Part shown: one piece after another, positions 169 through 20,072 of the stretch
How the letters are laid out: every line of letters begins with the position of its first letter
Position numbering within the stretch: position 1 is the stretch's first letter
From: Leptotrichia sp. oral taxon 879 str. F0557
GTDB lineage: Bacteria; Fusobacteriota; Fusobacteriia; Fusobacteriales; Leptotrichiaceae
Reading direction: 5' to 3'
DNA length: 64,000 nt
NCBI RefSeq assembly: GCF_000469385.1
Contig: NZ_KI271304.1
Coordinates: 12,001 to 76,000 of the forward strand
Made by a program: the position numbers and the translations under genes
Notes under the pieces: generated by a model
Database searches by the model: none
What the model was told of the DNA's origin: nothing
Seen by the model: the letters and a program-made list of their open reading frames with translations, nothing else

Positions 169-789
169 TTATAATCCAAATGAATAACCTACTCCTAAAG
201 TAAGTGCTCCGTGATTAGTATTAAATTTATTATTTGCTTTATATCCAGGAAGATCCACATCTAATTTTGTTTTCAAACTATTTATATTATATGATAAATC
301 AGTTACAAAATTTTTATATTGAATTCCAGCTCCAATTCCATAATAAATTCCTGAATTATATTTGAATTTAACACTAGAAGGTCCTTCTTTAATTTCTATT
401 TTTCCAGAATTAAATGCAACTCCTAAATTACCTTTTACATAAGGAGTAACTTCAGAATCATTTTTAAAGTTATATCTTGTTGTAAAATACACAGGTACTG
501 AACTAAGTCCTTTTACACTAACTCCTGGTAAGTTTTTACTGCTTAATTTATTATATTTATAAGCAATTCCACCACCCATTTCAAGATTTTCATTAAATAC
601 TGGTGTTCTATATTCACCTGTAATTTCAAATCCTCTCTTTAATGCATCTTTGTTGATTCTCCATGTTGAATTGTCAGTATCTTTAAATGTTGCACGATTT
701 GTCAAGTCTCCACCTATTCTAACTTCAGCAACACCAGCCATAGCAGTTGCACTTACAACTAGTCCCAATAATAACACTAATTTTTTCAC
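169..789 (-). CDS. Outer-membrane beta-barrel protein (porin/opacity-like)
   Basis: A 206-residue secreted protein. It opens with a classical signal peptide (VKKLVLLLGLVVSATAMA, cleavage after AMA-G). The rest is alternating polar/hydrophobic strands with frequent Gly and Tyr, ending in GVGYSFGL, where a C-terminal aromatic-rich strand is typical of barrels inserted by BamA. An in-frame ATG lies five codons upstream, but a GGAGGT Shine-Dalgarno overlaps it and sits seven bases before a GTG, so GTG at 789 is chosen. It most resembles small eight-stranded barrels of the OmpW/opacity type. Substrate and role cannot be read from sequence. Monocistronic, with its own terminator. Confidence 0.75.
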   Translation of the reverse strand: MKKLVLLLGLVVSATAMAGVAEVRIGGDLTNRATFKDTDNSTWRINKDALKRGFEITGEYRTPVFNENLEMGGGIAYKYNKLSSKNLPGVSVKGLSSVPVYFTTRYNFKNDSEVTPYVKGNLGVAFNSGKIEIKEGPSSVKFKYNSGIYYGIGAGIQYKNFVTDLSYNINSLKTKLDVDLPGYKANNKFNTNHGALTLGVGYSFGL

Positions 790-1110
790 AAAAATTACCT
801 CCATTTCTTATTTTTTAATAATTATTTTATTACCAATTACAGTTTACCAAATTTTTATTACTTTGTCAACAAATTATCTTAAAAAATTCTTTATGAAATT
901 AATTTTTTAAATTTAAAAAACATGTAAATATCACAACTAAAAAATCTTTAAAATCCCATATTTAATTAGCAATAAACATAAATTATAAATTATAATCTTT
1001 CTTAAGCAATTTTATTATTTTTATATTTGTTTTTATTGAGTATCGTCATAGAAAAAACTATCTTGTAAATTGAGAAATAAAAATTGTTAAAACTTTACAG
1101 ATTTCTTAAA
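790..1110. other. Intergenic, AT-rich, no gene seen
   Basis: About 320 bases between the barrel gene start and the cobT stop. It should hold the barrel gene promoter. I see no hairpin with a T tract, no repeat and no credible ORF. Confidence 0.5.
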
Positions 1111-2238
1111 TTATACATCAGGATATTTTCTTACAACTTCAGTAATATTACAAACTCCCTCAATCACAGGGAACATCATAACAGCCCCAGTACCTTCCCC
1201 CAATTTCATATTCATAAAGAGCATTGGCTCTAAATCCAGTTCTTTCATAATATACTTCATTCCAGGCTCTTCGCTCAAGTGGGAAGCAATCATAAAATCC
1301 CTGCAGTTTGGACAAATTTTATAAGCAACAAGAGCAGAAATTGCTGAAATAAAACCATCCATCACAACAGGTACACGTTTTTTTGCACATCCTAGATAAG
1401 TTCCCACCATTCCAGCAATATCAAGTCCCCCAACTTTTGCCAGTACATCTATTATTTTATTTTTTTCAAATTTTTCTTTTTTTCCTGTTCCATTTATATT
1501 TTCTTCAAAAAATTTTGACAATCCATTTACTTCAACTGCTTTTTTAACGACATTCTTCTTATGCTCCAAAGTTTTATCATCAATTCCGCTTCCATATCCG
1601 ACAATCTCATCTAGTGACAAATCTGTCAGAACCTTCAAAATAGCACTACTAGTCGTAGTATTTCCAATCCCCATTTCTCCAGTTGCAAATAAATTGTATC
1701 CGTCTCTTGCAAACTCGTCAACCATTTCAATCCCAGTTTCTATAGCCTTTACAGCATCTTCATACTCCATTGCGGCTTGTTTAGCAATATTATTAGTACC
1801 TGATTTCATAATTTTTCTGTTGATAATTCCCGATAAATCTATTTCTTTTTTAATGTCCGAACTCTCATCAATTCCTAGATCTACCACTTTCACATCAGCA
1901 TTATATGCCATTGAGAGAGCATTAATTGATGATTTGCCATTTAACATTGCTTCTACTACATACTGTGTTATTACTCTTTTGGATTTGCTGACTTTTTCTC
2001 TTTCCACACCGTTATCGGCTGCCATTACAAGCACAATTTTTTTGCAAGGTTTATAATTTTCGCTCATTCCCTCAAGCCTGATTGCCAACTCTTCGAGTTT
2101 TCCTAGTCCATTTGGAGTTTTTAGCAATGAATTCAGTTCATTTTCCTTTTTTTTCATTTTATTTCTATCTAAAGCCATTATTTTTTTTATTGTATCAAAT
2201 AAAATTTCTCCTGTAATTTTACTCTTTATGCTTTCCAT
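1111..2238 (-). CDS. cobT: Nicotinate-nucleotide--dimethylbenzimidazole phosphoribosyltransferase
   Basis: 375 residues, close to the usual length of about 350. CobT transfers phosphoribose from nicotinate mononucleotide to the lower-ligand base (5,6-dimethylbenzimidazole or an analogue), giving alpha-ribazole phosphate for cobalamin nucleotide-loop assembly in the cytoplasm. The family signatures GEMGIGNTTTSSAIL and DGFISAISALVA are present, as is a late Glu (GEGTGAVM) in the catalytic region. GAGG precedes the ATG. It follows hemL by 22 bases and is the last gene of the oxidoreductase-hemL-cobT operon. No other cobalamin gene is in the window, so it may serve salvage of cobinamide or remodelling of corrinoids; that is inference. 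Confidence 0.93.
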   Translation of the reverse strand: MESIKSKITGEILFDTIKKIMALDRNKMKKKENELNSLLKTPNGLGKLEELAIRLEGMSENYKPCKKIVLVMAADNGVEREKVSKSKRVITQYVVEAMLNGKSSINALSMAYNADVKVVDLGIDESSDIKKEIDLSGIINRKIMKSGTNNIAKQAAMEYEDAVKAIETGIEMVDEFARDGYNLFATGEMGIGNTTTSSAILKVLTDLSLDEIVGYGSGIDDKTLEHKKNVVKKAVEVNGLSKFFEENINGTGKKEKFEKNKIIDVLAKVGGLDIAGMVGTYLGCAKKRVPVVMDGFISAISALVAYKICPNCRDFMIASHLSEEPGMKYIMKELDLEPMLFMNMKLGEGTGAVMMFPVIEGVCNITEVVRKYPDV

Positions 2239-10541: not shown

Positions 10542-12560
10542 CTAAATCCCAATAAAAATTTCCACTATATTTCTTATTTTCTGTAATACAGTCTGTTTTT
10601 TCGCCTCTCTTGCTCCCTTTCTACGTGAAGTTGGTGGTAGGATGCTGTCTAATTCTGCACCAGCATAATCAACAAATCCTTTATTTATAGATTTTTCTAT
10701 AAAACGTTCTGAATCTTTCTTTAAACCCTCATTTTCTATTAATTCATTAATTTTTATTTTCTTTTCTTCATTTGCATATTTATAGAATGATTCAAGAATA
10801 TCACTGCTATTTTTCAGTTCAGATAAATCAGTTTTATTAATAAAATTCATGACTAAATCTTCTTTAGCTCTTGTTCCTAAACTCGTTCTAATAATTCTAC
10901 GTATTTCAGACTTTAAAGTTTCAATATCGTCGTGTTCTTCTGATTTCTTCAAAATTAAGGATAAAATATAATCAAGATTTATTTCATCTGTTTTAAGCAA
11001 ATCAATTTGAAATTCAATGTCAGAAAAATCAATTTCCTCTTCTCCATTTCTATTTTCATCATTTTTTCCAGTATTTCTTATACCTTCACAAATATCCACA
11101 TAAACACTTTTCATATCCTGCATTTGTCTATCTGATATTATTTTCTCAAAATTTTCAAATTCATCGAAATTCTTAAGTATATTTTCTGTTTTAAGTAATT
11201 CTCCAAATAATTCTGCAAATTCCTTTTTATCTTGATTTTTTTCAATTTCAACAGGCTTTGGAAATTTTTCAACTATTTCATTACATAAACCTACATATCC
11301 TTTTACTGATTTCCCTGTTTCCTCGTCTTTAAATCCATTTATATAATCGTTATAACTTTTTTCAAGAATTATATTTACACTATTATCATCTCCAAAAGTT
11401 TTAATAGCATTTTTTGTAGCCTTTTCCAAATCTCTAAAACATACAATATTTCCAAAAGTTTTAACTTTATTCAAAATACGGTTTGTTCTTGAAAACGCTT
11501 GAATTAATCCGTGGTATCTCAAATTTTTATCAACAAACAAAGTATTTAATGTTGGTGCATCAAATCCTGTCAAAAACATTCCTACAACAATTAAAATATC
11601 AATTTTTTTATCCTTAACCTTTTTAGACAAATCTTTATAATAATTCTGAAATTCATTTCCATTTGTTGAAAAATTTGTTTTAAAATAATCGTTGTAATCA
11701 GATATCACTTTATCCAAAAATTCTTTCGCTGTCGATTCCATTGCACTTGGCTCAAAATTTTCATCAGGAATATCTCCTATCGCATTCCGCTCTTCATTCG
11801 CAGCAAAACTATAAATTGTCGCTACTTTCAGTCTTTTTTCTTCAGGCAAATTTTCTTGCTGTTTTTGAAATTCTTCATAATAAAGTTTTGCCGCTTCTAC
11901 ACTTTGAACAGCAAATATAGCATTAAATCCGTTTAGCCGTTTCTGTTTTATATTATAATATTCATTTCTATGAGTTTTTGTATTATATACTTTTAAAATA
12001 TATTCTACTATTTTAGAAATTCTCTCAAGATGTAACAACATTCTTTTTTCAAGTTCCTTGAGCTTTTTATCATCTGTTTCTGTTTCAGCCGCTTTAAATT
12101 TTGCCCTAATATCATTATAATCCACTTTAAATTTTAAAACTTTTTTATCACGAATAGCATCTGTTATAACATAACTATGTAATTGAGCTCCAAAAATTCC
12201 AGCTGTTGTATCACTTCCAAGAGCATTTTCAGGAAAAATTGGTGTTCCTGTAAATCCAAACTGATAATAATTTTTAAAAGATTTCCTAATATTTTTTTGT
12301 GCATCTCCAAATTGTGAACGATGACATTCATCGTAAATTATGACACAATGTTTATCGTAAATTTCATGGCTTGGATTTTTTTTGACAAATTCATTTAATT
12401 TTTGAATTGTTGTAACAACTATTTTGTTATCCTGTTTTTCAATACTTCGTTTAAGTTCTTTTGTATCTTTACTACCATTTACACTATCAGGCTGAAATTT
12501 CTGATATTCCTTCATTGTCTGATAATACAGTTTTGAAAATCTTTTTAGAAAGATTATCCC
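10542..12560 (-). pseudogene. hsdR: 5'-truncated type I restriction endonuclease subunit R
   Basis: An open frame from ATG 12515 gives 657 residues, where HsdR is normally about 1000. It starts just after helicase motif Ia: helicase motif II DECH near residue 68, motif III FTGTPIF, motif VI QAFSRTNRIL, and the C-terminal HsdR helical domain are present. The N-terminal nuclease domain and Walker A are absent. HsdR-like residues continue 15 codons upstream of the ATG (IIFL..RFSKLYYQT, where intact proteins have IIFLVDRKDLDYQT) until a TGA at 12561-12563, which shows the gene lost its front by a rearrangement. Without Walker A and nuclease it cannot act as a restriction motor. Confidence 0.85.
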
Positions 12561-12591
12561 TCATACAACAAAATTTTTCTATTTCTTCCAC

Positions 12592-13018
12592 CTAAACAAG
12601 ACAATATCTGTCACTACTCAATACCATGTTAATCATATCAGACGGTATTTCTGTCTCATAGATATTAAATATTTTCTGTTTATACACAAGAAATTTTACG
12701 AGGTATATCCCTTTTCCTATCATTCTTAAATCTCCACCTTCATAAAATGGCTTTTGGATTCATCTTTTAATTTCAACTTCGACTTAAGTTCATTGAACGA
12801 ATTATAGTATTTATAAACTCCGCTAACTGGCTGATATTGTTCTATTTGATTTCCCTTAATCAAAAGATATTTTCCATTTTGTTTTATTTTTATATTTTTA
12901 TTCCGTCTCAAAAGAGACTAAAACCATATTTTTATTCTTAATCTATTATGAAATATAATTGCAGCAAAATAAGTAATTATTGCAACAATGAGGTTGACAA
13001 TTATATCTTGTATTATTC
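12592..13018 (-). pseudogene. Decayed TM-Nudix gene resembling a CBASS-associated (Cap16-type) effector
   Basis: In one frame, the sequence right after the methylase stop encodes a hydrophobic helix (IVNLIVAIITYFAAIIF), then RLRIKIWF, an in-frame TAG at 12918-12920, then [20 protein letters not shown] and [13 protein letters not shown], ending in a stop at 12726. A shifted frame continues with a further 43 codons (12592-12723). A TM helix followed by K-Y-L-L-x-K-G-N and Q-P-V-G-G-V-Y-K is the layout I associate with SMODS-associated Nudix proteins. The Nudix box itself is not intact. No CD-NTase gene lies nearby, so this is a relic. Family assignment is from memory of motif order. Confidence 0.45.
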
Positions 13019-16000
13019 TTAAATCTTCTCCATATCCTTTATTGAATTTTTTATATGTTTTCTTTCTTCTTGTGAAAAATTATATTTATCGAAAAGTTGC
13101 TCATCAATATTATCTATTGGTTTAGACCAATCTATATCTGAATTCTCTGTAAAATCTTGTAAGGGTAAATTAGAGAACACTTCTTTATTTAACCTTTGTG
13201 TTGCTTTTAAAGTTCCTATCATAAATCTTGCGAATTTTGTTTTTATATATTGATTCAAACTTTCAATCTCAACTTTACTTTCAAAATCTCCTATTGAAAT
13301 AAATGTTTGGGTAAATCCAGAATTTTTTTCTATTATTTTAGGTTCTCCTATTATTCTAGGATTGTCATTACCTAAATTGCCTGCAGCACCATTCGTTGCA
13401 GCAATAATTATCTTCCAACCATTTAAATTATGCTGTTCTGAATCAAGATATATTTTGTTAATATACTTTGAAGTTAATATACCTTTATTATCATTTCCAT
13501 ATATTTTTACTGAATCTTTTAACGGGCTCAAATGAAACACATCCAGATCTTTTTGTAGTATTGATGTAATTAGCCTTCTTTCAGTTCCAATTATCTTCTT
13601 AAATTGTGGTTTATCTTCAAAAAGTTTTTTTGTGTTAAATTTTGATTGAAGATATATTATATTTGTTATTGGTTCAAATCCCTTATAATTAATTACTTTA
13701 TCTACAATTTCTCTTATGATTTTATCGGGATAAAACTTTATAATTGGATGTGATATTATTTTTTTATCTCTTACTGTTATTACTATAGAGCTTGAAAGTG
13801 CTATGTCAGGGAAAATTTTTTTTGCATCAGATTCATAGCGCATAACCTTTAGATATTTATCATTTAACATTTTAGAATTCCATTTCTTAGGAGTTTTTCC
13901 TGCATTAAACAAAAACTTTCCTGGTGAAATAAATACTGCTAAATCTGATATAGAATACCCAATCTCCATAAATAAGTTATATATTTGTTTAGCGCTTGTT
14001 CCTATCAACTCTTCTTGGTAAGGAGGATTCCCTATCACTGCTCCGAACTTCACTGTTTTCTCACCTACCTTTATTTCATCTTCTAATGTAATTTTACTGA
14101 ACGGCTTTCCTTGTTCTAATATGCCACTTATTCTCTCATAATCCACTTCATCTTTATCATTTTTCACATCAATTAAATCATATGCATTGAACCCCGCCGC
14201 AATATTTTCAACATTGATGTCTAATATCTCATAGAACCTTCTTGTAAATTCATATGCGATAGATGATGTCGGAATCGAATAAATAATATCCCTTACATCT
14301 TCATGCGAATATCCAAGTTCAGATGTTAATCTCTTATATAAAGAAACTGCATATTCTCCTGATTTGCTTGCAATATCAAGCAACTTATCTTGCTTAAATA
14401 CAATCTCTTTTAATCCTTCTTCAGGTAATAAGTAAACCATTTCATCACATACCTTAGATGGTGTAATAACCTCTGATTCAGACATTCTATTAAATTTTTT
14501 GATAGATGTCATTGCTCTTGTAAGCGGTGTAACCGATTCATCACAAGCAAGCATTGAGATGTTTTGTATCTTATAGTCCAGCCTGCTACGCTTGAACGGA
14601 TCCATTACCTTGCTTATCTTTTCAATGATACCTTTATCCAAAAACAAATTCTTAGATAACCTAATATTTTCATCCTTATCAATCACGCTTAAAATATCAT
14701 CAAGCGAAGCTACTTTATCCTTTGTTAAGAAAGAAAAGAATAAAAGCCTCTGGTAATATGTTTTAATCTGACCTTCTAATTTATCTATTTCTTTATCGCT
14801 TTTTTCTTCAGTATAATCCTTACTCTCTGGTTTCTCTTGATTTTCTTCAGAATTTTTACCTTCCTCACCAGCTTCTTTAATATCAAGCTCATCACCTTCG
14901 CCTTGGTTTGGAGCTATCATAAGTCCTTGCTTAGAATTGAATTTTACCTGTTGTTCAATGGCTTTCCTAATAGTTTCATCATTTAATATTGATAAATCTA
15001 TCGGAATATCCAAAACTTCGTCCGATACACTTCTTTGATTGTTGTATTCACTGATTGCCTCTAAGATATTAGTCGCATCTACCTCTTTAATTTTATTATG
15101 ATTCATCATAATAATCGGAGAAATACGAAGTTCTTCAGAAATTCTTTCCTTAAGTTTTCTATTTCCATTTTTATCAATATTTACATTATAAATTAAAGAT
15201 TTTTGCTCTTGCATCCTAAAAAGTCTATTTGGAGAAAAATCAACCAGCAATGTTTGAGGTTTTAGATTCTCTTTAATAATCCCTTTATCACTAGATAATA
15301 TCCTTATATACTGATTTTGAAGTCTAAAAATAGATTGATCATATTCTTGTGGCGATGCTGTATCTTTAAAATAAATCATTGTATCCCATTGTTCAACAGT
15401 TGAACCCGTTAGCATTCTATTTACAGTTAAGGTTAATGTTTTTTTATTCTTATATTCACAATCTTTAATTCTTTTTTTTATATCTTTAATTTTTTTATAC
15501 TTTTTTTTAGCTTCAAATCCAGAAATATTGATAATCTCGTATTCACTTAAATTTTTAAAACTATCTTTTTTATCTTTCAGCAACTCTTCCATCGCATCAC
15601 ATGAAGCACATAATGGTAGTACCATAACCATATGTCTACACATTTTTCCTTCTTTAATTTTATCATAGTCTAAAAATCCTAATATATTTTCATCTTCTTT
15701 ACTACCATCTATAACTTGTAGTAAATCTAGAATTTCTTTTTCATTCTTGAACTTCTTATAATTATTATTAGTAGTATCTTCGTCTTTAGATTCTAGTTTA
15801 AATAAATCTGAAAGAGTATAGCTAGTACCTCTTTTCTTTAGTTGTTCCATTTTTTCACGTGATGATTTATTAGGATTAAATGCAAATCTAATCATTTGAG
15901 GAAATCCATAATAAGGATTATCCCATTCGTTAACTTCATCTTTATTTAGATTATTTTTATCCCATTCTTCTTGTTCTTTAACAATATCTGAAAATTGAAC

Positions 16001-17098
16001 AAAAGAAATTATGTCATCTTTTTCAAATTCACTTCCCATCAATATACGATATGGAGTTCCTGACAAATGTAACCTTATCTTTGCATTGATTTTTTTTAAT
16101 TTTTTTTCAGCTTTATTAATCTCAATTCTTTCATCTTCAAGTTTTTTTATATTTTTTTCTTCATTTTTATCATATCCTTTATTATCTATAGATTTCCCAT
16201 AAGATTTTCCTCTTGCACCAAAATGTGTTTCATCAATAATTAGTAAATCTATTTCTTTCCCAAATAACTCTTTGTGTTTGTCTTTAATATTATTACCTTG
16301 TAAGTCTTGTAAAGTTAAAAATAGAACAATTTTTTTCTCTTCAGATAACTTATCCTTAATAGCACTTTCATTTCTTGCTAAATCAGTTGCTTCAAAAAAT
16401 TCATAATCTACAAAATTGCCAGGTTTTTCAACTGTTTTTTTCCATTCATCTTTTACATCTGCCTTAGCCGATACTACTAACACTAAATCCGCTTTCATTT
16501 CTAATGCACAACAAAGAGATGTGAAAGACTTTCCAAAACGCATTACTGCATACATTAGAAGATTTTTTCTCCCATTATGTACTGCATTTACAAAAGATTT
16601 TACCGCATCAGCCTGATTTGGTCTTAAATTCCACTTCTCTCCTCTTTCATAGTGGTATCTTTCAGGCAGTCTGCTTTCAGAACGGTAATATTCATATTTC
16701 CCTGTATTACCGTTATAGTTACTCTTTATATCTTCTATGGCTTTGTCTATATCTGCATTTTTGGTTTCTTTGAAAAACTCCCTACTAAAATAAATGCCCT
16801 CTTCTAAATCGGATGATTTGAGGCGTTTTCTTCTTAAATCCTGCTCAAGAAATTGATGAATAGCATAATCTCTAAAATAGGTTTCATCATCTATAACAGC
16901 TTTGTTCTCATACTGTTTTTCAAGCTCAGGGAAGAATACTCTCCACTCGTTTAATCTTTGAGATACAGGTCTATATGTATCACCGACTTTTAGATAATTC
17001 GGCACAGTATTTGTTGTAAAAGCATAAATGTGCGGATCTACACGACCGATTATAATTCTATCAAGCACATCAATTGCTTCTATTTTCATTTTATTCAT
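13019..17098 (-). CDS. GIY-YIG nuclease / SF2 helicase / Eco57I-like N6-adenine methyltransferase fusion (restriction-modification)
   Basis: 1359 residues carrying a whole restriction-modification machine. Residues about 20-90: GIY-YIG-type nuclease (HIYAFTTN, YLKVG, then R and an E/H helix YAIHQFLEQ). About 155-600: SF2 helicase with Walker A MRFGKS (187-191), DETH box (289-292), LSGTPYR, and motif V/VI MLTGSTVEQWD..QSIFRLQNQ. About 750-790: acidic linker. About 870-1030: methyltransferase with EVITPSKVC (motif X), LLDIASKSGEYA (motif I) and GNPPYQEE (motif IV, near 1022). The C-terminal 300 residues resemble target-recognition regions of Eco57I-type enzymes. Its ATG directly follows the stop of the 308-residue partner, whose last codons contain the AAAGGAGGT site, so the two are translationally coupled. 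Intact, unlike everything around it. Confidence 0.85.
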   Translation of the reverse strand: MNKMKIEAIDVLDRIIIGRVDPHIYAFTTNTVPNYLKVGDTYRPVSQRLNEWRVFFPELEKQYENKAVIDDETYFRDYAIHQFLEQDLRRKRLKSSDLEEGIYFSREFFKETKNADIDKAIEDIKSNYNGNTGKYEYYRSESRLPERYHYERGEKWNLRPNQADAVKSFVNAVHNGRKNLLMYAVMRFGKSFTSLCCALEMKADLVLVVSAKADVKDEWKKTVEKPGNFVDYEFFEATDLARNESAIKDKLSEEKKIVLFLTLQDLQGNNIKDKHKELFGKEIDLLIIDETHFGARGKSYGKSIDNKGYDKNEEKNIKKLEDERIEINKAEKKLKKINAKIRLHLSGTPYRILMGSEFEKDDIISFVQFSDIVKEQEEWDKNNLNKDEVNEWDNPYYGFPQMIRFAFNPNKSSREKMEQLKKRGTSYTLSDLFKLESKDEDTTNNNYKKFKNEKEILDLLQVIDGSKEDENILGFLDYDKIKEGKMCRHMVMVLPLCASCDAMEELLKDKKDSFKNLSEYEIINISGFEAKKKYKKIKDIKKRIKDCEYKNKKTLTLTVNRMLTGSTVEQWDTMIYFKDTASPQEYDQSIFRLQNQYIRILSSDKGIIKENLKPQTLLVDFSPNRLFRMQEQKSLIYNVNIDKNGNRKLKERISEELRISPIIMMNHNKIKEVDATNILEAISEYNNQRSVSDEVLDIPIDLSILNDETIRKAIEQQVKFNSKQGLMIAPNQGEGDELDIKEAGEEGKNSEENQEKPESKDYTEEKSDKEIDKLEGQIKTYYQRLLFFSFLTKDKVASLDDILSVIDKDENIRLSKNLFLDKGIIEKISKVMDPFKRSRLDYKIQNISMLACDESVTPLTRAMTSIKKFNRMSESEVITPSKVCDEMVYLLPEEGLKEIVFKQDKLLDIASKSGEYAVSLYKRLTSELGYSHEDVRDIIYSIPTSSIAYEFTRRFYEILDINVENIAAGFNAYDLIDVKNDKDEVDYERISGILEQGKPFSKITLEDEIKVGEKTVKFGAVIGNPPYQEELIGTSAKQIYNLFMEIGYSISDLAVFISPGKFLFNAGKTPKKWNSKMLNDKYLKVMRYESDAKKIFPDIALSSSIVITVRDKKIISHPIIKFYPDKIIREIVDKVINYKGFEPITNIIYLQSKFNTKKLFEDKPQFKKIIGTERRLITSILQKDLDVFHLSPLKDSVKIYGNDNKGILTSKYINKIYLDSEQHNLNGWKIIIAATNGAAGNLGNDNPRIIGEPKIIEKNSGFTQTFISIGDFESKVEIESLNQYIKTKFARFMIGTLKATQRLNKEVFSNLPLQDFTENSDIDWSKPIDNIDEQLFDKYNFSQEERKHIKNSIKDMEKI

Positions 17099-18025
17099 CT
17101 AATTACCTCCTTTATTTACTAAATCTTGGAAAGTGTAATTTCTCTTTGCTCTCCAATCTTTTATAATGCACAAGCTTTTCTTGTCTTTTTCTTGAAAATC
17201 AAACAGAGTTATCTGTTCTATAGGCTCTACTGCTTCTTCATACGGAATAGTATAAGTAAGCCCATCCATCTGCCATAAATTCCATGAAATTATCTTTGCA
17301 ATATTTACCAGTTCTTTTTCTGTTGGGTACCTATTCAGCTTTTCTTCCATGTAATCACAATACGAAGCAAGCAGATTTTCCCTTGCGATAAGAAGACTGT
17401 CTCCTTGGAATTCAAATCCATATACACTCTGAAAAGCTCTTTCAGACCATTTTAGCCATTCCGTATCACTATCGGTATTTTCACATACAACTCTCATTTT
17501 CCTATCAAGCATACCTATTCTGTCTTTCAATTCTAATGGTTCTCCAGAAACTGTGTCATATCTGCTAACTAAGTAAGGTGCTTCGCCACAAGTAATTTCA
17601 AGTCTTTTTTCATCAACATACTTTTGCCAAGTTTTATTCTTTTTATCGGGAAATTTGATTTTTTCTGTGTTCGTTTCCCAACCCTTTTCAATTTCTCTAT
17701 TAAATATATTTTCGCTCCCAAACCAAGCATTATCCACAAGGTTATTTTGTGCATTGCAAACCCAGCTCGGTGTAAAAACTTCTGCCTTTCCTTTTGTTCT
17801 CTTACCTTGGCTTTCTTTTGTTTTTAATATCCTTGGCTGAATAACATTAGAATTTTTTCCAGTAATAAGACTATAAAGGATTGGATAATGTGAATCATAT
17901 TCTCTTCCTAAAATTTCATAGTCATCTGTTCCCCATATAATATTTCTATTTGTTGTTCTATCAATGAGAAGAGTTTCTATGATTTCTTTTTTCCATTTCC
18001 CCTCATCTACATCTATTGTAAACAT
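17099..18025 (-). CDS. Methyltransferase-like accessory subunit of the fused restriction system
   Basis: 308 residues. Contains a motif-X-like AEVFTPSWVCNAQNNLVD (about 80-97), a motif-I-like LEITCGEAPYLVSRYDT, and VYGFEFQGDSLLIARENLL (typical of the acidic loop and following helix of N6 methylases, linking the product to the growing list of loci). It lacks an NPPY catalytic motif, so by itself it should not methylate; it probably supplies a second methylase-like protomer or a specificity function to the 1359-residue partner. Proteins with this EITCGEAPYLVSRYDT signature are usually labelled restriction endonuclease subunit M and sit next to such fusions. First gene of the pair; its stop (TAG) is followed at once by the partner's ATG. 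Confidence 0.75.
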   Translation of the reverse strand: MFTIDVDEGKWKKEIIETLLIDRTTNRNIIWGTDDYEILGREYDSHYPILYSLITGKNSNVIQPRILKTKESQGKRTKGKAEVFTPSWVCNAQNNLVDNAWFGSENIFNREIEKGWETNTEKIKFPDKKNKTWQKYVDEKRLEITCGEAPYLVSRYDTVSGEPLELKDRIGMLDRKMRVVCENTDSDTEWLKWSERAFQSVYGFEFQGDSLLIARENLLASYCDYMEEKLNRYPTEKELVNIAKIISWNLWQMDGLTYTIPYEEAVEPIEQITLFDFQEKDKKSLCIIKDWRAKRNYTFQDLVNKGGN

Positions 18026-18259
18026 TATTTGTCTCCTCGATTTTTATTTTTCATTAATTTTTATGATTTATTGGAATTTCTCATTTTCTATTTTTCCTTA
18101 ATTTGTTTCTGTTTTTATAATTTCCTTAAAATAAATCTATTAAAAATTATTAAGTATATCAGTGTAGTATCTATAATTATTCTTTATAATATAGTTAATT
18201 TAATTTCATAAATATTATCTAAAAAATTAAATAAGTAAGATTCGAATATCAACTATTAG
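18026..18259. other. AT-rich junction between the nested restriction unit and the old type I locus
   Basis: About 230 bases of very AT-rich DNA with no ORF I believe. It should contain the promoter of the nested unit and one boundary of its insertion. A near-palindrome AACTAATAGTT lies by 18250-18260 at the broken end of the RhuM-like gene. No hsdS sequence can be recognised. Confidence 0.4.
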
Positions 18260-18511
18260 TTAACAGTTAGTTTTCCCTTTAATTGCACCATGTTGAGTGG
18301 TAGTCAACTGATAGTTTACAACCACTTTTTCCAATAATTCTCCATCTTCAAATATAGCTTTTATATGTTTACTCACATTCTGTTTCGTTGTTTCAAAAAG
18401 CTCTGCAATTTCCAGCTGACTTAGCCATACTGTTCCATTTTCTAGCTTTAGGCTTATCTTTGACTTTCCATCTTCTGTATTATAAATAATCATATCATTA
18501 CTCATTTTCAA
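18260..18511 (-). pseudogene. Truncated RhuM-like (virulence RhuM family) gene
   Basis: 83 residues. The start IIYNTEDGKSKISLKLENG, then TVWLSQLEIAELFETTKQNV and SKHIKAIFEDGEL is the conserved DNA-binding-like N-terminus of RhuM family proteins, which are normally above 300 residues. The frame stops after HGAIKGKTNC, where intact homologues continue into the YNLDMI.SVGYRV region, so about three quarters are missing. Start overlaps the hsdM end by 14 bases. RhuM-like genes are common passengers between hsdM and hsdS. The break marks where hsdS and the rest of the locus were lost. Confidence 0.75.
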
Positions 18512-20072
18512 GCTCCTTTACTATCTCATTTATGGAAGCTCTGAGTACATCTATTCTTTTTACTGTTTCCTCAATTTCTTTATTTAACACTTTAATATCA
18601 ATTATCTCACGTGTATCTTCTTTTTCAACATACGTAGAAACTGACAGATTATAGTCATTTTCAGCAATTTCACTATTATCTACCAATCTTGCAAAATATT
18701 CTACATCTGCTCTTTCCTTAAATTCCTTAACTATCGTTTCAATATTTTCAGGATTTAAAACATTATTATTTGTTTCTTTCTTAAATTCCTTGCTTGCATC
18801 TATAAAAAGTGTCTTATTTTCTGTCTTATTTTTTGCCATTACTAAAATACAAGTTGCAATAGATGTTCCAAAAAATAGATTTTCCGGCAGCTGTATCACA
18901 CAATCTACAAAGTTATTATCCACTAAATATTTACGAATAGTTCTTTCTGCTCCTTTACGATAAAAAATACCAGGAAAACATACTATTGCTGCTCTACCTT
19001 TGCTAGATAAATAACTTAAAGAATGCATTATAAATGCATAATCTGCATAAGATTTTGGTGCGAGCTTTCCAGCAGGTGCAAAACGTACATCGTTGATAAG
19101 TGTCGGATCACCGTCCCCTATCCATTTTATCGAATACGGAGGATTCGAAACAATTGCATCAAAAGGCTTTTCATCATTATGTAACGGATTAAGTAATGTA
19201 TCTCCACGTTTTATTGAAAAATTATTGTAGTTTACATTATGTAAAAACATATTCATACGAGCCAGATTAAAGTTAGTCATATTTATTTCCTGCCCAAAAA
19301 ATCCTTCATCAATAATATGTTCTTCAAACTGTTTTTTCATCTGAAGTAATAAAGAACCACTTCCACAGGTTGGGTCATATACCTTATTGATACTTGTTTT
19401 TCCTTCCATTACAAGTCTTGCCAAAAGTTTAGAAACTGTCTGTGGTGTAAAGAATTCTCCTCCAGATTTTCCAGCATTACTGGCATAATTTGAAATCAAA
19501 TATTCGTATGCATCTCCAAAAGCATCTATATCATTATCCTGAAAACTTCCAAAATTAATTTCAGAAATCCCTATTAAAATATCTGCTAATCTTGTATTCT
19601 TCTCTGCTACCGTTCCACCTAGACGGTTACTGGTTGTATCGACATCTTCAAACAATCCTTTAATATCATTTTCCGATTCAAAACCGATAGCACTTGCCTC
19701 AATGGATTTAAAAATATTAGCCAAATCAGTATTTAAATTTTCATTATTTCTCGCTGTTTTTACAACATTCTGAAATAATTGGCTTGGCAAAATAAAAAAA
19801 CCTTTATCTTCTACTGTATTAGGTCTAAAATCTTCTTCTGCTTCTGCATCAGAGATATTTTCATAATTGAATTCTAAATCTCCAGCTTCATGTTCTGCCT
19901 TATTAAAAAATTCCACCATGTTCTCAGAAATAAATCTGTAGAATAAAATTCCTAAAATATACTGCTTGAAGTCCCAGCCATCTACTGCTCCACGTACATT
20001 ATCAGCAATAGACCATATTTTTCTATGCAGTTCTGCTCTTTGCATCATCTCATTTGACCCTTTATTATCCAT
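18498..20072 (-). CDS. hsdM: Type I restriction-modification system methyltransferase subunit M
   Basis: 524 residues, full length. N-terminal helical HsdM domain ([21 protein letters not shown]), then an N6-adenine methylase: [14 protein letters not shown] (motif X), [12 protein letters not shown] (motif I), [10 protein letters not shown] (motif IV). The C-terminus has the usual coiled-coil that binds HsdS ([20 protein letters not shown]). AGGAGA precedes the ATG. It is the only intact subunit of this type I system here: hsdS is absent and hsdR lacks its 5' third. HsdM alone does not bind its target, so unless an hsdS lies elsewhere it should be inactive; it could also pair with an orphan HsdS. 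Confidence 0.92.

What the first reader, a model, noticed from the sequence alone, without database searches (positions are those of the whole stretch)
13019..18025. Two-gene system: GIY-YIG nuclease, SF2 helicase and N6-methylase fused in one 1359-residue protein plus a 308-residue methylase-like partner
Seen: all catalytic motifs of a GIY-YIG domain, a helicase (Walker A at 187-191, DETH at 289-292) and an NPPY methylase in one frame, with a partner encoded immediately before it, start codon touching stop codon. Known: type ISP, type IIL and Eco57I-like enzymes fuse helicase or nuclease with methylase, but a GIY-YIG nuclease at the front with a separate NPPY-less methylase partner is not a textbook type. 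The partner has the EITCGEAPYLVSRYDT signature and no NPPY, so it may be a dead protomer that gives asymmetry or specificity. The intact state, in contrast to the wreck around it, suggests recent arrival and active use.
Basis: partly seen in the sequence, partly recalled or inferred. Interest (0 to 1): 0.75.

Follow-up and report, generated by a model that had tools for sequence, protein, structure and literature searches.

The report
Restriction system with split methyltransferase
A two-gene bacterial anti-phage (restriction-modification) system in which one big protein carries a nuclease, a DNA motor and the catalytic, sequence-reading half of a DNA methyltransferase, while the small neighbour appears to supply the missing cofactor-binding half; the family is already catalogued, but this division of labour seems not to have been described.

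Summary
The window encodes, back to back on the minus strand, a 308-aa half-methyltransferase and a 1359-aa protein with a T5orf172-type GIY-YIG domain, an SF2 helicase, a methyltransferase-like region with NPPY, and a hypervariable target-recognition domain (TRD). It is a restriction-modification system already held in PADLOC as 'type IIG' plus 'type II MTase', found sporadically in several phyla, on plasmids and in viral contigs.

The 'dead NPPY-less protomer' reading is not supported. In about 70 homologues the partner keeps the SAM motifs X, I, II and III and stops just before motif IV. The large protein's own N-half has lost the motif II acid in 56 of 56 sequences, while NPPY is kept in 60 of 60. 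Relatives carry the NPPY/TRD half fused to the helicase, free-standing, or fused to the partner; phages carry partner plus NPPY half without helicase. Two natural arrangements are predicted as complete methyltransferases (pLDDT 91-92).

Best reading: a split N6-adenine methyltransferase whose catalytic/TRD half is completed by the partner for methylation and is tethered to the motor-nuclease for restriction. The 5.8-kb stretch replaced the middle of a type I locus that a close congener keeps intact. No activity was shown.

The parts
17099..18025 (-). Partner protein, 308 aa: N-terminal half of an N6-adenine methyltransferase (motifs X, I, II, III), ending before motif IV
17768..17782 (-). Partner motif X, EVFTP (residues 82-86)
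   Evidence: E 69/69, TP 68-69/69 in homologues
17570..17602 (-). Partner motif I, LEITCGEAPYL (residues 142-152), SAM-binding loop
   Evidence: E 72/72, C 72/72, G 72/73, E 73/73, P 73/73
17411..17422 (-). Partner motif II, YGFE (residues 202-205), acidic residue for the SAM ribose
   Evidence: E/D 72/72
17264..17281 (-). Partner motif III, NLWQMD (residues 249-254)
   Evidence: N 73/73, D/N 72/72
17153..17164 (-). Partner C-terminal IKDW (residues 288-291), the strand before the split point; in natural fusions it runs into the NPPY half
13019..17098 (-). Large protein, 1359 aa: GIY-YIG, SF2 helicase, degenerate MTase N-half, NPPY/TRD half
16709..17056 (-). GIY-YIG (T5orf172-type) nuclease domain, residues 15-130
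   Evidence: T5orf172 in 22 of 26 homologues; catalytic pattern
14999..16636 (-). SF2 (ResIII-like) helicase/translocase module, residues 155-700
   Evidence: ResIII 1.6e-12
16526..16543 (-). Walker A MRFGKS, residues 186-191
   Evidence: M186, R187, G189, K190 invariant in 11 divergent homologues
16223..16234 (-). Walker B DETH, residues 289-292
   Evidence: D289, E290, H292 invariant
14099..14515 (-). Degenerate MTase N-half (degN), residues 862-1000: motif I glycine replaced by Lys, motif II acid lost
   Evidence: folds together with the NPPY half
14018..14029 (-). Motif IV NPPY, residues 1024-1027
   Evidence: NPP 60/60, Y/F 60/60
13169..14011 (-). Hypervariable target-recognition domain, residues 1030-1310
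   Evidence: 28.6% mean identity against 62-77% elsewhere
13028..13168 (-). Conserved C-terminal tail, residues 1311-1357 (SDIDWSK..IDEQLFDKY..)
   Evidence: 68.5% identity
12530..18302 (-). Stretch that replaces the middle of a type I R-M locus (rhuM C-terminus, hsdS, hsdR N-terminus) kept by congener G008

Best explanation
It is an ATP-dependent restriction-modification system built round a methyltransferase split in two. The small partner is the SAM-binding half (motifs X-III). The C-terminal third of the large protein is the other half, carrying the catalytic NPPY motif and the TRD. Together, in trans, they form one gamma-class N6-adenine methyltransferase that protects host DNA. The same TRD-bearing half is joined to a degenerate, probably SAM-less N-half, an SF2 motor and a GIY-YIG nuclease; on unmodified sites the motor translocates and the nuclease cuts. 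Shown here: gene order, domains, motif retention and loss, the three fusion arrangements, predicted folds, the variable TRD. Inferred: complex formation, SAM use, target base, translocation and cleavage. How partner and degenerate half share the catalytic half (displacement, or separate subunits in a larger complex) is open.
For: Partner: motif I E 72/72 and C 72/72, motif II acid 72/72, motif III N 73/73 and D/N 72/72; degN: motif II acid 0/56, Lys in the motif I glycine position 55/56; NPP 60/60. Three arrangements: NPPY half fused to the helicase (window and about 30 loci), free-standing (L019, L027, L039, L098, L102-L105, L107, L108, L113, L131), or fused behind the partner at the same split point (L044, L096, L097, L099-L101, L106, L116, L118). 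Phages carry partner + NPPY half without helicase: PTm1 as two genes, FNU4 as one 546-aa protein; Pfam Eco57I matches across the FNU4 junction (residues 94-287, profile 9-171, 90.9 bits). 75 of 80 helicase loci show a partner; the other five are cut or short stretches (two have it in the wider region; one has it elsewhere on the contig). Folds: L044 fusion pLDDT 92.2, pTM 0.90; window 782-1359 pLDDT 90.7, pTM 0.86; both match N6-adenine MTases CamA, BrxX, MmeI, LlaGI, TaqI. GIY-YIG.
Against: degN folds well with the NPPY half in cis, so the large protein might be a self-sufficient methyltransferase with an unusual SAM site; the invariant KxG in degN shows it is under selection, not simply decayed. 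Complexes could not be modelled. Several phage contigs carry a partner-like protein with no NPPY half found (11 of 18 records, though these may be fragments), so the partner may have another role there. No methylation, cleavage or phage data exist for this locus.
Confidence: 0.68

Rival explanations
1. The large protein is a complete type IIG/ISP-like enzyme by itself (degN + NPPY + TRD is the working methyltransferase) and the partner is an accessory structural or regulatory protomer.
For: degN + NPPY half is predicted as one compact MTase fold in cis with high confidence and resembles LlaGI, DrdV and BpuSI; PADLOC calls it IIG.
Against: degN lacks the motif II acid in 56/56 and the motif I glycine in 55/56, whereas the partner keeps both. 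In many relatives the large protein has no NPPY half at all and the NPPY half is fused to the partner. Phages keep partner + NPPY half without degN.
Confidence: 0.17
2. Toggle model (a stronger form of the best explanation): the single NPPY/TRD half pairs alternately with the partner (methylation) or with degN plus motor and nuclease (restriction), so that one recognition module serves two mutually exclusive complexes.
For: Both N-halves are predicted to complete the same C-half; free-standing NPPY halves exist beside both N-halves; degN motifs are kept equally in loci where no NPPY half is fused to it.
Against: In the window's arrangement degN and NPPY are covalently joined, so the partner would have to displace degN. 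No direct evidence. Dimers in which one copy methylates and another recognises would look the same.
Confidence: 0.3
3. The locus is a remnant with at most methylation activity (like B. subtilis DnmA-YeeB-YeeC, an orphan methylase beside an inactive helicase/nuclease).
For: PMC9973331 reports that the B. subtilis cluster does not restrict phages; the Oceanivirga copy here has a frameshift in the helicase; the window copy lies in the ruins of a type I locus.
Against: Both window genes are intact with every catalytic motif, and most relatives are intact.
Confidence: 0.12

Closest known systems
PADLOC PDLC03626 'type IIG restriction enzyme-methyltransferase' and PDLC03390 'type II methyltransferase'
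   Same: Full-length match of both proteins (1814 and 449 bits): same families.
   Different: The label IIG does not cover the SF2 motor, the GIY-YIG nuclease or the need for a separate SAM half.
DnmA-YeeB-YeeC (B. subtilis; V. crassostreae homologue said in PMC9973331 to affect phage sensitivity)
   Same: N6-adenine MTase + SF2 helicase + T5orf172/GIY-YIG protein, conserved as a cluster (PMC9973331, PMC7261158).
   Different: Three separate genes and a complete MmeI-like MTase; no half-MTase partner or degenerate N-half is described. Homology to the window proteins was not tested.
Type ISP enzymes (LlaGI, LlaBIII)
   Same: Nuclease, SF2 translocase, N6-MTase and TRD in one chain; the window C-terminal model matches LlaGI 5ffj at E 2e-9.
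   Different: GIY-YIG at the front instead of an Mrr-type PD-(D/E)xK nuclease (own knowledge); needs a partner; MTase N-half degenerate.
Type III R-M (Mod + Res)
   Same: Relatives with partner-NPPY fusion plus GIY-helicase-degN (L044, L096 and others) are laid out like Mod plus Res.
   Different: Nuclease fold, methylase class and the degN module differ (own knowledge of type III).
Naturally split C5 methyltransferases (AquI, EcoHK31I; named in PMC3404938, found but not read in full)
   Same: One MTase made of two polypeptides (own knowledge).
   Different: Cytosine-C5 enzymes; no motor or nuclease and no second, degenerate N-half.

Membership tests
Type IIG R-M | REase and MTase in one polypeptide with a TRD | tested here: met
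Type IIG R-M | Single polypeptide sufficient, no ATP motor | tested here: not met
   SF2 helicase with intact Walker A/B and a partner found wherever the locus is complete
Type ISP R-M | N-terminal Mrr-like PD-(D/E)xK nuclease | tested here: not met
   N-terminus is T5orf172/GIY-YIG
Type ISP R-M | SF2 translocase then N6-MTase then TRD in one chain | tested here: met
Type ISP R-M | Complete MTase in the same chain | tested here: inconclusive
   MTase fold complete in the model but SAM motifs degenerate
GIY-YIG superfamily, T5orf172 | Y / KIG / R / H / E pattern and Pfam profile | tested here: met
   22 of 26 homologues pass E 0.01, the window sequence itself does not
GIY-YIG superfamily, T5orf172 | Nuclease activity | not testable with these tools
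   needs an assay
N6-adenine MTase, gamma-type (X-I-II-III-IV-TRD order) | Motifs X, I, II, III and IV with TRD after the catalytic region | tested here: met
   Met by partner + large protein together; by neither alone
DnmA-YeeB-YeeC type cluster | Complete MmeI-like MTase plus separate helicase and T5orf172 genes | tested here: not met
   fused GIY-helicase and split MTase; sequence homology to these proteins not tested
PADLOC PDLC03626 / PDLC03390 families | Full-length HMM match | tested here: met

The most novel reading that the evidence does not exclude
A restriction-modification architecture with one shared catalytic/TRD half and two competing N-halves: an intact SAM-binding half for methylation and a degenerate SAM-less half fused to a motor and GIY-YIG nuclease for restriction. 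Specificity changes by swapping the NPPY/TRD cassette alone, which keeps methylation and restriction matched. Phage-borne SAM halves may exploit the same interface.
Probability: 0.3. Interest if true: 0.75.

Novelty: new variant of a known kind. Interest (0 to 1): 0.52.

Why it matters
If right, it explains a widespread but unexplained 'restriction endonuclease subunit M' annotation as the missing half of a methyltransferase, and shows how an R-M system can change specificity by exchanging one cassette that serves both activities. It gives concrete residues to mutate (partner E143, E205; large-protein NPPY) and warns that methylome-to-gene assignment or cloning of the 'IIG' gene alone may fail without its small partner.

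Tried and rejected
Pfam and NCBIfam on the partner gave nothing; PDB sequence search gave only chance hits, with a faint type I M-subunit match for the partner profile (2okc, E 0.32). A programmed frameshift or phase variation in the helicase was considered because Oceanivirga breaks at GACAAAAATC; it is one genome seen twice (L017 and G023) and the window and other copies are in frame, so this was dropped. Rfam: nothing. Promoter and terminator scan no better than shuffles. No silent TRD cassette exists in the window's own genome. Literature searches for a split N6-methylase or a fused GIY-YIG/helicase/methylase system found no description; the library is open-access only, so absence is weak evidence. 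Structure prediction of the partner + large protein complex was not available.

Full report
1. The observation. Two adjacent minus-strand ORFs lie as described: 308 aa (17099-18025) and 1359 aa (13019-17098). The partner's TAG is followed directly by the large protein's ATG, with GGAGG 7 nt upstream. Pfam finds ResIII and Eco57I in the large protein and nothing in the partner. PADLOC recognises both over their whole length as putative R-M proteins (1814 and 449 bits), so the family is not new to databases.

2. Relatives. The same two-gene operon at 50-77% identity of the partner occurs in Anaerococcus, Peptostreptococcus, Veillonella, Oceanivirga, an Erysipelotrichaceae MAG and an Alphaproteobacteria MAG. 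The window genome belongs to the same family as G023, whose copy equals the Oceanivirga one. None of 12 congeners has it; a few other genomes of the phylum do. More distant versions sit on Enterococcus, Lactobacillaceae and Bifidobacterium plasmids and in viral contigs.

3. Anatomy of the large protein. Residues 15-130: Pfam misses this stretch in the window, but 22 of 26 aligned homologues match T5orf172, a GIY-YIG family, and Y25, K37/G39, R48, H81 and E107 are near-invariant in about 54 sequences. Residues 155-700: SF2 motor with invariant Walker A/B and SGTP. Residues 862-1356: predicted with high confidence (pLDDT 90.7, pTM 0.86) as one N6-adenine methyltransferase plus TRD, closest in the PDB to CamA, BrxX/PglX, LlaGI, M.BseCI, DrdV, BpuSI, MmeI and TaqI. 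Identity among six copies of this type is 62-77% everywhere except 1030-1310, where it falls to 28.6%: the signature of a target-recognition domain.

4. The partner. It is a half-methyltransferase. It aligns by profile with a second, more canonical partner family (EPAAGEGAFL...GIE...NGNFL) that takes its place in Enterococcus, Levilactobacillus and some viral loci. Motif X, motif I (LEITCGEAPYL), the motif II acid and motif III are kept in practically all of about 70 sequences. It ends just before motif IV.

5. The key comparison. degN, the matching half inside the large protein, keeps TP and a KxG in place of the motif I glycines but has no acid at motif II in any of 56 sequences; NPPY is kept in all 60. 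The NPPY/TRD half is found in three places: behind degN (window type), as a separate gene, or fused behind the partner. In the fusions the partner's [ND]WR strand runs straight into FD.VIGNPPY, and Pfam's Eco57I domain matches across that junction with 90.9 bits in Fusobacterium phage FNU4. A natural fusion (L044) is predicted as one compact methyltransferase (pLDDT 92.2, pTM 0.90) with the same PDB relatives. Tenacibaculum phage PTm1 and phage FNU4 carry the partner and the NPPY half with no motor or nuclease, as expected of a stand-alone methylase. Of 80 loci with the helicase module 75 show a partner; the remaining five are cut or short stretches, and for three of these the partner is found in the wider region or elsewhere on the contig.

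6. Mechanism. I therefore conclude (inference, about 0.68) that partner and NPPY half together are the methyltransferase, and that the GIY-YIG nuclease and SF2 motor restrict unmodified DNA found by the same TRD. Since both N-halves can complete the same C-half in models, an exchange between a methylating and a restricting state is possible (about 0.3) but not shown. None of SAM binding, methylation, translocation or cleavage was demonstrated.

7. Setting. Congener G008 has hsdM-rhuM-hsdS-hsdR (1008 aa) at this place. In the window the stretch 12530-18302 replaces about 3.8 kb, removing most of rhuM, all of hsdS and the first ~346 residues of hsdR, with 97.5% identity to G008 on the hsdM side and 88.5% on the hsdR side. 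The names rhuM and hsdS in G008 rest on position and ORF length, not on a family search. The type I system is thus disabled except for HsdM, and the new system is a replacement at a defence locus. GC and GC3 are not atypical.

8. Specificity cassettes. G025 has a silent 350-aa NPPY/TRD cassette downstream that is closer to the active TRD of Oceanivirga (60%) than to its own (49%). L043 has two extra cassettes, one inverted with 160-nt inverted arms (76% complementary). L098 has two cassettes in a row with 99% identical first 300 nt. Cassette exchange is therefore a plausible route to new specificity.

9. Known and new. The protein families are catalogued. The set GIY-YIG + SF2 helicase + N6-MTase is described as the three-gene DnmA-YeeB-YeeC cluster (PMC9973331, PMC7261158). 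I found no description of the split methylase, the degenerate second N-half or the fused architecture; the library covers open-access papers only. Hence 'new variant of a known kind'.

Noticed in passing
L011 5980-10051; L015 10640-14711; L021 11102-12641: A full type II CBASS-like operon (cyclase, E1-E2, JAB, 2TM effector) directly follows the R-M pair in Peptostreptococcus (family search run on L011) and, by ORF layout, in Veillonella; a shorter cyclase + 2TM pair follows it on a Pediococcus plasmid.
   Followed up: partly
L043 10792-14088: Extra NPPY/TRD cassettes, one in inverted orientation, with 160-nt inverted arms: candidate invertible specificity switch; no recombinase seen in the 14.7 kb held.
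   Followed up: partly
L045-L051, L134-L141: Many viral contigs carry a partner-like SAM half of about 230-290 aa; an NPPY half was found on only 7 of 18 records, which may be fragments. A phage-borne half could complement or capture a host's NPPY half.
   Followed up: partly
L145 5138-9972: A window-like large protein paired with the other partner family (partnerB), suggesting partners can be swapped.
   Followed up: no
L015 5291-5632; also L018 4750-4950 and L020 5660-5863: A small HTH (C-protein-like) regulator lies just upstream of the partner in several relatives; the window has none between 18025 and 18303.
   Followed up: no
window 10542-12515, 18260-18511, 18498-20072: Type I remnants: HsdR without its N-terminal nuclease part, a truncated RhuM-like protein, and an intact HsdM left without HsdS.
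   Followed up: yes
L017 9419-9494: The Oceanivirga copy has a one-base gain in an A-run (GACAAAAATC) that breaks the helicase frame.
   Followed up: partly
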